This document shows, piece after piece, positions 49,898 to 57,140 of a stretch of DNA of 64,000 nucleotides. Each line of letters starts with the position of its first letter. Position 1 is the stretch's first letter. The position numbers and the translations under genes are program-made. The notes beneath the pieces were generated by a model. That model searched no databases and had not been told where the DNA came from. It saw nothing but the letters and a program-made list of their open reading frames with translations. The stretch is from Rhodoferax bucti (GTDB lineage Bacteria; Pseudomonadota; Gammaproteobacteria; Burkholderiales; Burkholderiaceae_C): assembly GCF_005876985.1 (NCBI RefSeq), contig NZ_VAHD01000001.1:310001-374000 (forward strand). The letters run 5' to 3'.

Positions 49898-51061
49898 TCA
49901 GGCGTAGTCGCCAGGCTCGCGAGCATCCGCAAAGCGCAGCTTGATGGCCATGCGCGCTTCCTTGGCCTCCAACAAGGCCTCCACGCAATCGCCATCGAGT
50001 TGGCCGGCGACCACCTCGGCACGCAGCTCGGCACACACATGTGCGTCATCCCATGAGCTTTTGTAAGCGCGGCGGTTGCTCAAGGCGTCGTACACATCGG
50101 CGACCGCCACAATGCGGCCCTCCAGCGGGATCTGCTCCATGGTCAGGCCCCGCGGGTAGCCCGAGCCATCGCCCCGCTCGTGGTGGGTGGAGACGATGTT
50201 GCACATCACCTGCTTCTGAAAACTGCCTTTGAGCCCCAGGTCGGTGCTGATGCGCTGGATGATGTCCACCCCCAGTGCCACATGCCGCTTCATCACCTCG
50301 TACTCGGCAGCATCCAGCCGGCCGGGTTTTAACAGAATATGGTCAGGGATGCCGACCTTGCCGATGTCGTGCAGCGGCGCAAACAACTGCACGTACTCCA
50401 CATATTCATCGCTCAGGCCATACACCGGCGCCAAGGCCCGCGCCATGATGCGCGAGTAGTAGGCAATGCGCTCCAAGTGCTGTCCGGTTTCAAAGTCGCG
50501 GGTGCGGGCCAGGTCCACGGCCACCTGAATGGTGCTCACCACGCCATGCACCAGACGGCGCTGCATCAGGAAAAGGTGGGAAATCAGCTCTGAAAAATCG
50601 TGCAGCAAATCTGCATGCTCTTCGGTGAAGGCATGCGGTGTTTTGGAGTCGTAAAACAAAAAGCCCGCCAGTGCATCCCCTTGGAATACCGGCGAGGTCA
50701 CACTGGCGCGGTAATGCTGGTGCTTAAGCCAGCGGGTGTGCTCGGTGGGGGCACCAAATGCCTCTGCAATTTCACCCACCACCCGGCTGCGGCGACTCTC
50801 GGCCAAGGCCTGCAAAGAGGGCACGCGGGACAGAGGCACCTCGTAGTTCTGCAAGGTGTCGTCCCCCACCGTGCTGCTGACAAAGGTTTTGAGCATGCCG
50901 CTCACCGCGTCGTACAGCACCACCGCCACCCGGTCGACCTGGGAAAAGCGGGCCGTGATCAGCCCATGGATCATGCGCAACTGGGTTTCCAGATCGGCAC
51001 TGGAGGTGCGCAATGCCGGTACGGCAGAAGTTGCGGACGGTGAAGCAGTCATGGGCTGCAT
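49898..51061 (-). CDS. GAF/HD-GYP c-di-GMP phosphodiesterase
   Basis: The protein (387 residues from the ATG at 51061, after GCGGAG) has an N-terminal GAF-like sensor (VDRAVVLYDAVSG region, then GDALAGFLFYDSKTPHAFTE) and a C-terminal HD-GYP domain with LFAPLHDIGKVGIPDHILLK, VMKRHVALGVDII, VSTHHERGDGSGYPRGLTME and VAVADVYDALSNRRAYK. HD and GYP residues are all present, so hydrolysis of c-di-GMP to GMP is likely. A diguanylate cyclase is encoded 3.3 kb away. The ligand of the GAF domain is unknown. Confidence 0.9.
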   Translation of the reverse strand: MQPMTASPSATSAVPALRTSSADLETQLRMIHGLITARFSQVDRVAVVLYDAVSGMLKTFVSSTVGDDTLQNYEVPLSRVPSLQALAESRRSRVVGEIAEAFGAPTEHTRWLKHQHYRASVTSPVFQGDALAGFLFYDSKTPHAFTEEHADLLHDFSELISHLFLMQRRLVHGVVSTIQVAVDLARTRDFETGQHLERIAYYSRIMARALAPVYGLSDEYVEYVQLFAPLHDIGKVGIPDHILLKPGRLDAAEYEVMKRHVALGVDIIQRISTDLGLKGSFQKQVMCNIVSTHHERGDGSGYPRGLTMEQIPLEGRIVAVADVYDALSNRRAYKSSWDDAHVCAELRAEVVAGQLDGDCVEALLEAKEARMAIKLRFADAREPGDYA

Positions 51062-51144
51062 TGTTAACCAATCTCCGCACTGCAAACGCTATAGCCTGAC
51101 ACAATCTACGGCATTCATTCCTGCCATTTCACGTTTTACACACT

Positions 51145-52833: not shown

Positions 52834-54330
52834 TTACTGCAACTCCACCACCTTCACCGCCTGCCCCGCAGCAGGCTCACCCCCGCCGTAGTAGCCATTG
52901 ATGAGGCGCAGCTGCTGCTCGGCGCGCGCCAAGGGAGAGGCTTTGGCCAACTCGGCAAAACCCCCACGGGGGTAGTTCACCGTTTTGAGCACCCAAGGCC
53001 GGGCAGCGCTGCGGTCTTGCGCAGTCAGGGCGCGGAAGCTGCCTTCGGCCTCACGCAGCCCTGCGCGTGCGCGGGCCAGGGCGTTGGCATCTTTGGCGCT
53101 GGTTTGCAGCAGGTACACCCGCTCGCCGGGGCCGGTAATCACGGTGGCTTCCAGCGCCACGGTGCTGCCGTTGGCATTGGCGCGGGCGCCGGTAAAGCGC
53201 GAGGCCTGCAAGCCGTTGATGGTGGTGGGCTCCAGCTTGCCTTGGGTGGGCTTGAGCAGGTTGCGCACCACATCCGCTGGCGTCTTGCCGGCCTGCGCCG
53301 GCACCAGCCGCACCAGCAAGGCTGCGTCGCGGGCGGTGTTGATGAAAGCCAGCTGCTCACTGTCGTTCTGGATGTACCAGCCGGCCGGCGCCGTTAGCGC
53401 CAGGCCCAGGGGCTCGTGGTAGAAGTTTTGGCCGCGCACCAGGCCTTGCGCCGGGCTGTCGCCAAAGTTCAGGCCGCGAATGGCCAGCAGGTAGCGGGCG
53501 CGGCCTTCGTCGTTGTAGCGGTCTTTGCTTTGGTACTGGGCGGCCAGGCGGGTGATGGTCTCCAGCCGTTGGTCGTTGCTGGGGTGGGATGACAACCAGT
53601 CCCCCTTGGCCGGTGCGGGGCGGCCTTCGGCCTGGGCCTGGTCGGCAGCGAACAGCTCCTGGTTTTTCAGGACCTTGATCACGTCAATCATGTTACGCGG
53701 GTCGTAGCGGGTGCGGTAGAGGTATTCGGCCCCCAGCCCGTCTGCCTGCAGCTCCTGCTCGCGCCCGTACGAGGCGATGTAGCCCGCCGCCACATTTTGC
53801 GACACCTGGCCCGCCAGCTGGCCGGCACCTGTGACTCCATACGCCTCAGCCACCGCACCCAGAATGCTGGCGGCAAACACGCCCAGCCCCGCGTTTTGCT
53901 GGCTGGTGGCGCGCTGCGCGCCATGGCGGGCGGTGACGTGACCGATCTCGTGCCCGATGACGCCGGCCAAATCGGCCTCGCTCTCCATGTAGGCCATGAT
54001 GCCGCGTGTGACGTACACATAGCCGCCGGGCAGGGCGAAGGCGTTGATTTCGGGGCTGTCGAGCACGGTGAAGTGCCACTCCAGCTGCGTGCGGTGGCTT
54101 TGCGCCGCCAGCTTTTGACCCAAGGTGTTCACATAGGTCTGCAGCGCGGGGTTGTTTACCACGCCGTATTCCCGCAGCACCTCTTGATGGCCCTTGGCGC
54201 CCTCGGCCAGCTCGGCCTCTTCGCTCATGGCCGAACGCTCGGTCTGGCCCGTGACCGGATTCACCACCTGGGTACCGCAGGCCACCAACAACGCGCTGGA
54301 CACCAGCGCCACACTCCACCAGAAACGCAT
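52834..54330 (-). CDS. M48 family metallopeptidase lipoprotein
   Basis: The 498-residue protein starts with a lipoprotein signal peptide (MRFWWSVALVSSALLVACG, lipobox Cys19), then an M48 protease domain with IGHEIGHVTARHG and the third zinc ligand in EQELQADGLGAEYLY. A ~200-residue C-terminal part follows (LTAPAGWYIQNDSEQLAFIN onward) that resembles the extra domain of BepA-like/YggG-type M48 proteins. It is likely anchored in the outer membrane and involved in envelope protein quality control. Confidence 0.9.
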   Translation of the reverse strand: MRFWWSVALVSSALLVACGTQVVNPVTGQTERSAMSEEAELAEGAKGHQEVLREYGVVNNPALQTYVNTLGQKLAAQSHRTQLEWHFTVLDSPEINAFALPGGYVYVTRGIMAYMESEADLAGVIGHEIGHVTARHGAQRATSQQNAGLGVFAASILGAVAEAYGVTGAGQLAGQVSQNVAAGYIASYGREQELQADGLGAEYLYRTRYDPRNMIDVIKVLKNQELFAADQAQAEGRPAPAKGDWLSSHPSNDQRLETITRLAAQYQSKDRYNDEGRARYLLAIRGLNFGDSPAQGLVRGQNFYHEPLGLALTAPAGWYIQNDSEQLAFINTARDAALLVRLVPAQAGKTPADVVRNLLKPTQGKLEPTTINGLQASRFTGARANANGSTVALEATVITGPGERVYLLQTSAKDANALARARAGLREAEGSFRALTAQDRSAARPWVLKTVNYPRGGFAELAKASPLARAEQQLRLINGYYGGGEPAAGQAVKVVELQ

Positions 54331-54372
54331 GAAAAACCCTCTGTTGACGCGCCGCAGCGCTTTGCACCAATT

Positions 54373-55374
54373 TTAGGAGCGGGACGGCACGTCGTTGTAC
54401 CACTCGGTGCGGTTGCGGCCGGTTGACTTGGCGCGGTACAGCGCCACATCGGCTTCGTGCAAAAGCCGGGTCAACAACACACTATCTTGCCCATGGAGCA
54501 GCGTCTGTTGGGCGCATGACACGCCGATGCTCACCGTCACCGGCTTTTTGTGCACCGTCACATTTTTCATGAGCTGGTGCACCCGCTGCGCGATTGCGCC
54601 GGCCCCCTCAGGCCCGGCATCGGGCAACCAGAGCGCAAACTCCTCGCCGCCGTAGCGCACCACCACATCGCTGGCGCGCTTGCTGGCTTGCAACTGGTGG
54701 GCCAGCTCTTGCAAGACGCGGTCGCCCTCCTCATGGCCGTACTTGTCGTTGACCCGCTTGAAATGGTCTACATCCACCATCAGCAAGGCAGCCGTGGCGC
54801 CCGGCTCCGACTGGGCTTGCCACTGCGCAACCGCACGCTCCAGGGCACGACGGTTGCCAAGGCGGGTGAGCGGGTCGGTCAGGCTCAGGGCCGAGAGTTC
54901 GCGGTTTTCCGACTCGATGCTCTGGGTGTGTTGTGACAGCTGGTGGTGCACCGAGCGCAGCTCCGCATTCGCCTGGGACAGCTCTGCAGCCAGCCGTTGT
55001 GCACGCCCCCGCGCCTCCACCAGCTCCGCCTCAAAACGGCTGCGCTCCAGGGCTACAAAAAACACCCAAAAAATGCAGTCCTGCTCGTCCCACAAGCCAC
55101 GCCGGCCATTCACCATCACCGGCACCCGCTCACCTGCCGCGTTGTGCAGGTGCAAGTACAGCTCTTGCACCGCGCCGTGGCGCAGCATCAGCGGCCACAC
55201 ATGGGTCTGCAAAAAAATACGGCTGGGTGCAGGCAGCAGGCAGTCCAGGTAGCGGCCGCGCCACTGTTCTGCCACACCGCCCACCAGGGCCAGCAGGTCG
55301 CTGTTGGCGGTCAGGATGTGGCCGCGCGCATCGGTCACGAGCACTGGGCTGGGAAGCAGGTCCAGGTGATCCAT
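54373..55374 (-). CDS. PAS-GGDEF diguanylate cyclase
   Basis: The protein (333 residues from the ATG at 55374, after AGGGAG) has an N-terminal PAS domain (LLPSPVLVTDARGHILTANS), a coiled coil (AAELSQANAELRSVHHQLSQ) and a GGDEF domain with LTDPLTRLGNRRALERAV, VDVDHFKRVNDKYGHEEGD and VVRYGGEEFALWLPDAG. An RASD inhibitory site precedes GGEEF at the usual distance, so it should make c-di-GMP and be product-inhibited. It begins 30 bases after the RsbQ-like hydrolase gene and is very likely its signalling partner: RsbP of Bacillus has the same PAS-coil front with a phosphatase output instead. Confidence 0.9.
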   Translation of the reverse strand: MDHLDLLPSPVLVTDARGHILTANSDLLALVGGVAEQWRGRYLDCLLPAPSRIFLQTHVWPLMLRHGAVQELYLHLHNAAGERVPVMVNGRRGLWDEQDCIFWVFFVALERSRFEAELVEARGRAQRLAAELSQANAELRSVHHQLSQHTQSIESENRELSALSLTDPLTRLGNRRALERAVAQWQAQSEPGATAALLMVDVDHFKRVNDKYGHEEGDRVLQELAHQLQASKRASDVVVRYGGEEFALWLPDAGPEGAGAIAQRVHQLMKNVTVHKKPVTVSIGVSCAQQTLLHGQDSVLLTRLLHEADVALYRAKSTGRNRTEWYNDVPSRS

Positions 55375-55403
55375 CAATGGGTCTCCCTGGTATTGAATGA
55401 AGC

Positions 55404-56210
55404 TCAAAGGGGCCGGGCCAGGTAGGCCTTCATGGCGTCTACCACCAAGGGGGCGTGCGACATGTGGCTGCAATGCCCCACCACATCCAGCACCTGCAAG
55501 GTGCTGTTGCGCAAATGCTGGTGCAGGTATTCGCCCACCTCTACCGGCGCCAGAGCGTCGTAGCGGTGCTGCAGGATCAGGCTGGGGCAGCGCACCTGGG
55601 GCAGGTCTGCCCGGTTATCGGCAAAAAAAGTAGCCTCGGCGAAGATGCGGGCAATCACCGGGTCGGTGGAGCAAAAGCTCTCCGACAGGCTGCTGGCCAC
55701 CGGCCCACCACCTTGCTCGCCCGACAGCACCGGCGTGAGGTAGTCCGCCCAGCCAATGAAGTTTTGGTCCATCAGCGCGAGCAGGCCTTCCAGGTCTGTG
55801 CGCTCAAAGCCGCCCACGTAGTCGGGTGGCTGGTTCAAAAAGCAGGGCGACGGGCCCACCATGACCATGCGATCAAACAAGCCCGGCCGGGCGATGGAGG
55901 CCAACATGCCAATCGAGCAGCTCACCGAGTGGCCCACAAACGTCACCCCCGAGCGCAGGCCCAGCGCATCGCACACGTCCAGCACGTCTTGTGCGTAGCC
56001 ATTCAGGGTGCTGTAGCGGCGGCTGTCAAAGGCGGAGGCATCGGACTGCCCGCTGCCCACGTAATCAAACAGCACCTGGCGGTACCCATCTGCAAAAGCG
56101 GGCACCACCTGCGCCCACATGTGCTGGTTGCAGCCGAAGCCATGCGCATACAGCAACACCTTGTCGCCTTCGCCCGTCACATGGACGTTGTTTCGTTTGA
56201 GGATACTCAT
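55404..56210 (-). CDS. RsbQ-like alpha/beta hydrolase (stress-signal receptor)
   Basis: The 268-residue protein matches RsbQ in length and in all its marks: MSILKRNNVHVTGEGDKVLL, YAHGFGCNQHMWAQVVPAF, LFDYVGSGQSD, the Ser elbow FVGHSVSCSIGMLASI, the Asp in LQHRYDALAPVEVGEYL and the His in DVVGHCSHMSH. RsbQ and its plant relatives D14/KAI2 are hydrolase-like receptors; in Bacillus RsbQ is needed for the PAS phosphatase RsbP. Here it precedes a PAS-GGDEF gene, so it may control c-di-GMP output. I used the ATG at 56210; a TTG two codons upstream is unlikely. Confidence 0.9.
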   Translation of the reverse strand: MSILKRNNVHVTGEGDKVLLYAHGFGCNQHMWAQVVPAFADGYRQVLFDYVGSGQSDASAFDSRRYSTLNGYAQDVLDVCDALGLRSGVTFVGHSVSCSIGMLASIARPGLFDRMVMVGPSPCFLNQPPDYVGGFERTDLEGLLALMDQNFIGWADYLTPVLSGEQGGGPVASSLSESFCSTDPVIARIFAEATFFADNRADLPQVRCPSLILQHRYDALAPVEVGEYLHQHLRNSTLQVLDVVGHCSHMSHAPLVVDAMKAYLARPL

Positions 56211-56460
56211 GGACAAGGCCCCGGTAGCACCGAATGAATGCGTTGCCAGTCTAGGTCAAAAGCCGAACATCCGGCAAGCGCAAGTTCCCTCAAAAACCTG
56301 CCTCCGTCACGCAGTCCACCGCCACACCCCGAATACCCTTCCCTCAGGGTTATTGAGGCGCCAAGCATCAGACGGACGAGCAAGAGACTTAGGACGTTGG
56401 GCCGCCTGGTTTCCGTGGCGTTAGGCTTGTACCGGGGTGTTGGCCCTACTTTGTGCAGGA

Positions 56461-56937
56461 TCAGCAACCGCTGGTAAGTGACGTAATGTCTGGCGTCAAC
56501 CCGAAGGTATCCACTTGGTGATAAATCACCATGCAATTCATGGGGTCTGGAGCCGTATCCACCCGAAACTGCGTGACGGCGGTGTTCACTTCGTACACAC
56601 CAACGCCTTGGACGCTGACCCAGTCTTTGATACCGAAATAGCTGGGCACTCGCGATTGGCCGGTCGGATAGCCGTTGTACATCGTGCCTACCAGCCCTTG
56701 AGGCCCAGTTACGGGGCCCGAAAATGTAGCCACATTGCAGCTTGCAACCAGCCTACATTTGGCCGAAGCCAGCGACACTGCCGCACCCACGGCGCCCGAG
56801 GTGGCTTGAACTGCGGAAATGCGCGCCTGCGACCCCAAGTTGACGAACTTGGGTAACGCAACAGCGGCCAAAACGCCAAGAATGACAACCACCATAACGA
56901 GTTCGATTAACGTAAAACCTCGTTGCCGCATAGCCAT
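56461..56937 (-). CDS. Type IV pilin-like protein, MSHA-type
   Basis: The protein (158 residues from the ATG at 56937) has a prepilin leader and cleavage site RQRG/FTLIELVMVVVILGVL, the invariant Glu5, and VAALPKFVNLGSQARI-like continuation, then a globular part with two Cys pairs (CRLVASC; C near 133 and the last residue). The leader and PKFVNLGSQAR strip resemble MshA-type pilins. No assembly genes are near, so it is an orphan pilin in this window. GTG at 56949 and ATG at 56931 are alternative starts. Confidence 0.85.
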   Translation of the reverse strand: MAMRQRGFTLIELVMVVVILGVLAAVALPKFVNLGSQARISAVQATSGAVGAAVSLASAKCRLVASCNVATFSGPVTGPQGLVGTMYNGYPTGQSRVPSYFGIKDWVSVQGVGVYEVNTAVTQFRVDTAPDPMNCMVIYHQVDTFGLTPDITSLTSGC

Positions 56938-57094
56938 TGACTTTGCCACTCCCTACCTCGCTGCCAACATTTTTTTCCTATTATCAAGGAAAAAATATAG
57001 CCAACCCGCCCGCTACAAGGCGGGAGCACGCAGACGACGCAGCAGGTGGTGCACTCCACGCCAAGCGACGCTACTTGCACATTAAACAAACCGA

Positions 57095-57140
57095 TAGCGC
57101 TTACAGAATAAGCGCAAGCAGCTACAAAAACTATAGCAAC
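57095..57140 (+). repeat. Dispersed intergenic repeat, copy 6 (shorter)
   Basis: This copy reads TAGCGCTTACAGAATAAGCG then CAAGCAGCTACAAAAACTATAGCAAC. The left half differs from other copies but also gives a TAGCGCTTA/TAAGCG pairing. It lies between the pilin and dbpA genes. Confidence 0.7.

What the first reader, a model, noticed from the sequence alone, without database searches (positions are those of the whole stretch)
54373..56210. RsbQ-like hydrolase receptor paired with a PAS-GGDEF cyclase
The hydrolase matches RsbQ in length and in the GHSVSCSIG and GHCSHMSH motifs, and the next gene 30 bases on has a PAS-coiled-coil front. In Bacillus, RsbQ works only with the PAS phosphatase RsbP. 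Here the output domain is GGDEF with an intact RASD inhibitory site, so a hydrophobic small-molecule signal processed or bound by the hydrolase could set c-di-GMP level. This looks like an RsbQP module with the output swapped, in an organism without a sigma-B pathway.
Basis: partly seen in the sequence, partly recalled or inferred. Interest (0 to 1): 0.78.

Follow-up and report, generated by a model that had tools for sequence, protein, structure and literature searches.

The report
RsbQ-type hydrolase receptor driving a diguanylate cyclase
This gene pair encodes an RsbQ-family hydrolase beside a protein with a PAS and a diguanylate cyclase domain, a member of a sensing module described in 2011, in which the hydrolase is predicted to dock on the PAS domain and likely passes an unknown small-molecule signal into the second messenger c-di-GMP.

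Summary
An RsbQ-class hydrolase (complement 55404-56210, 268 aa) lies 29 nt upstream of a PAS, coiled-coil, GGDEF protein (complement 54373-55374, 333 aa) with intact GGEEF and RASD motifs. The window PAS carries eight of their nine class residues; the hydrolase keeps the triad, pocket and gate residues they list. Here 81 of 88 other class hydrolase loci have a class PAS just downstream; 0 of 19 paralogous hydrolases examined do. Outputs: 39 kinase, 33 GGDEF, 6 phosphatase, 3 undetermined. The window pair sits in a mostly-GGDEF hydrolase clade, so its cyclase output looks old and stable. What I add: natural single-chain fusions of hydrolase, PAS and GGDEF (also a kinase version), four to six changes on quick trees, which favour direct contact over a freely diffusing product. 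An AlphaFold2 model of one fusion folds both domains well but leaves docking unsettled. The ligand, and whether the hydrolase raises or lowers c-di-GMP, remain unknown. Verdict: new member of a known kind.

The parts
55404..56210 (-). RsbQ-class alpha/beta hydrolase (268 aa)
   Evidence: Pfam Abhydrolase_1 70.2 bits
55926..55928 (-). catalytic Ser95 (GHSVS)
   Evidence: S in 45 of 45 aligned class hydrolases, window included
55557..55559 (-). catalytic Asp218
   Evidence: D in 45 of 45 aligned
55473..55475 (-). catalytic His246 (GHC)
   Evidence: H in 45 of 45 aligned
54373..55374 (-). PAS-coiled coil-GGDEF protein (333 aa)
   Evidence: preferred ATG at 55374 (an upstream TTG at 55473 would overlap the hydrolase)
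55042..55374 (-). RsbP-type PAS domain (residues 1-111)
   Evidence: S9 L12 L47 R52 F54 L55 H58 E71 P85 (+P61) align with RsbP C10 L13 L48 Q53 F55 C56 Y59 E72 P86 (+P62)
54889..55041 (-). helical linker with heptad repeat (residues 112-162)
   Evidence: 0 of 5000 shuffles as strong
54409..54882 (-). GGDEF domain (residues 165-322)
   Evidence: PF00990 143.8 bits
54667..54678 (-). RASD inhibitory site (residues 233-236)
   Evidence: RxxD at this spacing in 31 of 33 GGDEF partners of other loci
54637..54651 (-). GGEEF active-site motif (residues 242-246)

Best explanation
The pair encodes an RsbQ-class hydrolase and, 29 nt downstream, an RsbP-type PAS-coiled coil-GGDEF protein, and the hydrolase is predicted to dock on the PAS domain and so would switch the cyclase that likely makes c-di-GMP. 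The likely mechanism: the hydrolase binds, and perhaps slowly cleaves, an unknown hydrophobic small molecule in its conserved pocket; the occupied hydrolase sits on the PAS F-alpha helix and the start of the linker; the change in the PAS dimer travels down the coiled coil and alters how the two GGDEF domains meet. The RASD site would cap the output by product inhibition. Shown here: both genes, their class residues, the conserved pairing, and natural single-chain fusions in relatives. Inferred: contact, ligand, dimer, direction of control and cyclase activity.
For: RsbQ is the best PDB sequence match, E 1.7e-92. Triad and pocket/gate residues are all present; S95, F135, F195, D218 and H246 are the same in 45 of 45 aligned class hydrolases (45 of the 89 then held, window included). 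The PAS has eight of nine class residues, including F54, H58 and E71, whose RsbP counterparts F55, Y59 and E72 are essential; F55A abolishes RsbQ binding in B. subtilis (PMC3183031). Class PAS directly downstream in 81 of 88 class hydrolase loci and beside 0 of 19 paralogous hydrolases. Reciprocal: of the 17 strongest class-PAS matches in 399 genomes of the order, 15 (window included) lie next to a class hydrolase. Hydrolase and PAS distances correlate, r 0.79 over 74 pairs. Natural fusions: L108 (582 aa, hydrolase-PAS-GGDEF), P0003-P0007, P0010, P0011, P0015 (kinase), P0009, P0019.
Against: No experiment on this pair. AlphaFold2 of the hydrolase-PAS part of a natural fusion folds both domains (mean pLDDT 88.6) but pTM 0.67 leaves their relative placement unsettled. 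Window position 9 is Ser where the class usually has Cys. Seven of 88 class hydrolases lack a class PAS next door: L022 (contig ends), L040 (other PAS kinase), L064 (broken PAS start), L068, L069, L104, L107; G551, home of L104, has no class PAS match at E 0.001, so a class hydrolase can exist without this partner. The correlation of distances also reflects shared descent. Among the fusions P0019 looks frame-disturbed, P0009 may be cut short, and Pfam sees no PAS in P0003 or P0010, where the PAS call rests on alignment and, for the near-identical L108, on my class profile (E 2.4e-15).
Confidence: 0.75

Rival explanations
1. The hydrolase is chiefly an enzyme: it makes a product that it hands to the PAS pocket, and the PAS domain is the sensor (Model 1 of PMC3183031). 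Contact is brief and catalysis is essential.
For: The triad is the same in 45 of 45 aligned class hydrolases, and triad mutants of RsbQ are null in B. subtilis (PMC3183031). Fusion does not exclude handing over a product inside one chain.
Against: Covalent fusions and near-constant pairing are more than a freely diffusing product would need. KAI2/D14 relatives (PDB names) keep the same kind of triad yet act as receptors (recalled).
Confidence: 0.3
2. The two proteins are only co-transcribed: the PAS domain senses its own ligand and the hydrolase does unrelated metabolism.
For: The hydrolase occurs without a class PAS beside it in a few genomes (L068, L069, L104, L107).
Against: Pairing across several phyla and three output types, 0 of 19 controls, reciprocal pairing and natural fusions.
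Confidence: 0.05
3. The GGDEF domain is not a cyclase here but a c-di-GMP-binding or scaffolding domain.
For: No activity has been measured; the own genome has 41 GGDEF matches in all, this one included, so redundancy is high.
Against: GGEEF, the I-site and the full-length domain are intact; I-site kept in 31 of 33 GGDEF partners of other loci.
Confidence: 0.05

Closest known systems
RsbQ-PAS module with GGDEF output (Nadezhdin, Brody & Price 2011, PMC3183031)
   Same: Hydrolase gene immediately upstream; N-terminal class PAS; coiled coil; GGDEF output; no DIT motif; class residues
   Different: Ser in place of the usual Cys at position 9; natural hydrolase-PAS fusions, found here in relatives, are not mentioned in the parts of the paper that I saw (parts 1-5 of 8, Supporting Information, passages)
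Bacillus subtilis RsbQ/RsbP
   Same: Hydrolase with full triad, pocket and gate residues; PAS with the essential positions; coiled-coil linker
   Different: Output is GGDEF, not a PPM phosphatase; only weak SpoIIE matches and no small RsbW-like protein seen in this genome
Olei00960 of Oleispira antarctica (PDB 3qvm)
   Same: Second-best solved structure by sequence, E 2.5e-82
   Different: Its function and gene neighbours were not looked at here
Plant KAI2 and D14 receptors
   Same: Next-best solved relatives, E from 2e-54 to about 1e-37 in the rows shown
   Different: Plant signalling partners such as F-box proteins (an F-box/hydrolase entry is listed; biology recalled), not PAS proteins

Membership tests
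RsbQ-PAS module (PMC3183031) | RsbQ homologue encoded immediately upstream of the PAS gene, same strand | tested here: met
   29 nt gap, same strand
[quoted passage not shown]
   PAS at residues 1-111
RsbQ-PAS module (PMC3183031) | Nine class residues | tested here: met
   Eight of nine; S9 instead of the usual C. Which consensus letter of the paper's figure legend belongs to which position is my assignment
RsbQ-PAS module (PMC3183031) | No DIT motif at the end of the PAS domain | tested here: met
   Sequence there is FVALERSRFE
RsbQ-PAS module (PMC3183031) | Potential coiled coil of at least 21 residues to the output domain | tested here: met
   Heptad pattern over 51 residues, 0 of 5000 shuffles as strong; not run through a coiled-coil program
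RsbQ-PAS module (PMC3183031) | Output domain PPM, histidine kinase or GGDEF | tested here: met
   GGDEF 143.8 bits
RsbQ-PAS module (PMC3183031) | Direct hydrolase-PAS contact | tested here: inconclusive
   Natural fusions in relatives favour it; AlphaFold2 docking unsettled, pTM 0.67
RsbQ (B. subtilis) hydrolase | Triad S96 D219 H247 and F27 V97 F136 F196 | tested here: met
   S95 D218 H246 F25 V96 F135 F195
RsbQ/RsbP sigma-B pathway | PPM phosphatase output acting on RsbV | tested here: not met
   Output is GGDEF
Active diguanylate cyclase | GG(D/E)EF plus RxxD five residues before it | tested here: met
   GGEEF and RASD; activity itself not testable here
KAI2/D14 receptor | Binds a butenolide and recruits an F-box partner (recalled) | not testable with these tools
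   Sequence relation only

The most novel reading that the evidence does not exclude
The GGDEF-linked RsbQ clade is a bacterial counterpart of the plant KAI2/D14 hormone receptors: a permanently docked hydrolase receptor subunit, fused into one chain in some lineages, whose ligand-occupied state writes directly into c-di-GMP without needing to release a product.
Probability: 0.25. Interest if true: 0.65.

Novelty: new member of a known kind. Interest (0 to 1): 0.3.

Why it matters
The 2011 paper calls the signal of this module unknown, and the B. subtilis output (sigma-B) is several steps downstream. A GGDEF partner would give a one-step readout, and the natural single-chain fusions would give one purified protein in which ligand binding and cyclase activity can be measured together, so candidate ligands could be screened directly. 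That makes an old open question easier to test; the gene pair itself is an ordinary member of a published module.

Tried and rejected
Chance adjacency: rejected (0 of 19 paralogs against 81 of 88 class loci). The M48 peptidase gene after the cyclase (52834-54330) as a third module part: rejected, because within the stretches held for the 52 named loci (flanks up to 3.5 kb) it is found only in L001-L003, the closest relatives. Promoter scan: no sigma-70-like site in 54250-57100, uninformative; four terminator-like sites against 3.1 expected. AlphaFold2 of the fusion without an alignment: useless, pLDDT 36; it spent one of two jobs. Foldseek on the second model: the 50 rows shown are all hydrolases of this fold (RsbQ, Olei00960, KAI2/D14), so it gave no docking evidence. 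I first thought the linker residues R111 and E115 (invariant) were class-specific; from recall, ordinary PAS linkers often carry a similar R-x-x-x-E, so I dropped that. NCBIfam gave no family over its cut-off for the hydrolase and only the general GGDEF domain for the partner. Supplementary files of papers were not open to me. One class hydrolase shorter than 200 residues in its open frame was left out of the output tree (L051), and L069 out of the fusion trees.

Full report
What is there. On the minus strand, a 268-residue alpha/beta hydrolase (55404-56210) is followed after 29 nt by a 333-residue protein (54373-55374) made of a PAS domain, a helical linker and a GGDEF domain. The hydrolase's best solved relatives by sequence are B. 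subtilis RsbQ (1wom, E 1.7e-92) and Olei00960 (3qvm, E 2.5e-82), then the plant KAI2/D14 receptors. The cyclase domain has GGEEF with RASD five residues before it.

Prior art. Nadezhdin, Brody and Price 2011 (PMC3183031; I read the abstract, parts 1-5 of 8, the Supporting Information and searched passages) found 45 RsbQ homologues next to RsbP-like PAS proteins with phosphatase, histidine kinase or diguanylate cyclase output, in Gram-positive and Gram-negative bacteria, and named nine class residues. In RsbP, L48A, F55A, Y59A and E72A are null, and F55A breaks binding to RsbQ. A 2025 eLife paper (PMC12143880; passages only) adds an AlphaFold2 model of 2RsbP/2RsbQ with RsbQ between PAS domains and linkers, and cites the 2011 work for the kinase- and GGDEF-linked versions. 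So the claimed swap is published. No paper that characterises an RsbQ-PAS-GGDEF pair by experiment showed in the listings of my eight searches; the library is partial.

Membership. The window PAS matches eight of the nine class residues at a constant offset of one, plus the conserved proline (S9 L12 L47 R52 F54 L55 H58 E71 P85, P61); the assignment of the paper's consensus letters to positions is mine. Among 52 aligned rows (window plus 51 downstream neighbours of the 52 named loci, including the non-class L040), E72 is Glu in 52, P62 is Pro in 51, F55 is Phe in 47, Y59 is His or Tyr in 52, and C10 is Cys in 38. There is no DIT motif. The linker has a strong heptad pattern. The hydrolase keeps S95, D218 and H246 and the pocket/gate residues F25, V96, F135 and F195. 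In 45 aligned class hydrolases (window plus 44 of the 88 other class loci) five of these seven are invariant, V96 is Val in 44 and F25 is Phe in 42.

Is the pairing real? Three samples. (a) A scan of named species genomes, seeded with short peptides of the window hydrolase, gave 52 loci; 50 have a class PAS directly downstream, one contig ends (L022) and one has another PAS kinase (L040). (b) Searches of 399 genomes of the order and 398 of the phylum found class hydrolases (E 1e-35) in 17 and 20 genomes, giving 37 different loci with the window copy; 32 have the class PAS next door, that is 31 of 36 without the window. Together 81 of 88; the gap from the end of the hydrolase match to the PAS match is 20-108 nt in 80 of the 81, and 369 in L051, whose hydrolase frame is broken. 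(c) The control: ten of these genomes were searched for weaker hydrolases; 19 of the 35 paralog matches, from eight genomes, were held as loci, none with a class PAS within 1.5 kb. In these ten genomes class and paralog scores are well separated (234 bits and up against 64 and down), though elsewhere the weakest class hits reach down to 161 bits. From the other side, a class-PAS profile in the same 399 genomes gave 47 matches at E 1e-9. Of the 17 at 64 bits or more (a cut-off I chose after seeing the list), 15 lie next to a class hydrolase (window included), one (G380) is in a genome whose hydrolase lies elsewhere beside a broken PAS start, and one (G164) has none; none of the other 30 is beside a class hydrolase. 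The module is sparse: 17 of 399 genomes, and of the 12 same-family genomes listed only the window's own.

Outputs. Of 88 loci without the window, the script labelled 37 histidine kinase, 33 GGDEF (5 with EAL), 6 phosphatase, 5 undetermined and 7 without class PAS. Two of the undetermined (L105, L106) I read by eye as kinases of the HWE/HisKA_2 kind (a recalled label), making 39. For the 49 partners given to Pfam (window included) the script has 25 GGDEF, 18 kinase and 6 phosphatase; Pfam has 25 GGDEF, 17 HisKA, 17 HATPase_c and 6 SpoIIE. On a quick, unrooted hydrolase tree of 88 rows the three outputs need at least eight changes; the window falls in a four-row set (support 99) within a 33-row set (99) that is mostly GGDEF, with kinase exceptions L004, L010 and L021 (kinase domains checked). 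The cyclase output therefore looks like a long-kept trait of this branch, not a recent swap.

What is new here. In L108 (a gammaproteobacterial genome by my reading, listed as 'same class' as the window, one 4.1-Mb contig) hydrolase, PAS and GGDEF form one 582-residue protein; the same genome also has a separate pair (L092). A search of 5.8 billion proteins found 18 matches, among them close copies (P0003-P0007), a distant hydrolase-PAS-GGDEF fusion (P0010), hydrolase-PAS-kinase (P0015), and hydrolase-PAS proteins without output (P0011, Halomonas sp. PA5) or perhaps cut short (P0009, P0019). Parsimony counts five or six changes of the fused state depending on the rows, five without P0019, and four without P0019 and P0009. 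Several come from short metagenome contigs; L108, P0003 and P0011 are the safest. Pfam does not see the PAS in P0003 or P0010; alignment with the class does. PMC3183031 does not mention such fusions in the text I saw, and none showed in the search listings above.

Mechanism. Fusion argues that hydrolase and PAS work side by side. It does not decide between a docked receptor and an enzyme that hands over its product. The AlphaFold2 model of the hydrolase-PAS part of L108 with 65 rows has mean pLDDT 88.6 but pTM 0.67: good domains, unsettled docking. I favour the docked-receptor reading because of the fusions and the kinship to KAI2/D14, and mark contact, ligand and direction of control as inferred. 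Hydrolase and PAS distances correlate (r 0.79, 74 pairs after leaving out six near-duplicates and the short L051), which fits co-inheritance and is only weak evidence of contact.

Surroundings. The own genome holds 41 GGDEF matches, this one included, so the output has a network to feed. In L001-L003, the closest relatives, the order hydrolase, cyclase, M48 peptidase, M14 peptidase is kept; the stretches held for the other 49 named loci show no match to these two peptidases. I judge the finding real, correctly read, already described, and of modest interest (0.3).

Noticed in passing
L023, L025, L026: Identical hydrolases in Caldimonas and Tepidimonas and a nearly identical one in Silanimonas (a gammaproteobacterium), with matching PAS sequences in the partners: likely recent horizontal transfer.
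   Followed up: partly
P0017 (544 aa): An OmpR-type response regulator (receiver plus DNA-binding domain) fused in front of an RsbQ-class hydrolase, 10 member sequences, one short contig; a possible further output type.
   Followed up: no
L104 and L107: Sister class hydrolases without a PAS neighbour; the genome of L104 has no class PAS match at E 0.001, that of L107 has one beside another class hydrolase.
   Followed up: partly
L032:4334-4792: In Paenibacillus zeisoli the PAS-coil partner ends at 152 residues with no output domain.
   Followed up: partly
L064 and L140 (G380): Hydrolase beside only a broken PAS start, with an intact class PAS protein on another contig of the same genome.
   Followed up: partly
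L040:4325-6082: Class hydrolase followed by a hybrid histidine kinase whose PAS lacks most class residues: possible partner replacement.
   Followed up: no
window 49898-51085 (-): ORF with HD and GYP-like motifs, possibly a c-di-GMP phosphodiesterase, about 3.3 kb beyond the cyclase gene (named by eye, no family search).
   Followed up: no
window 56461-56949 (-): Gene with a type IV pilin-like start (RGFTLIELVMVVVILGVLAAVALP) upstream of the hydrolase; no match in the stretches held for the 52 named loci.
   Followed up: partly
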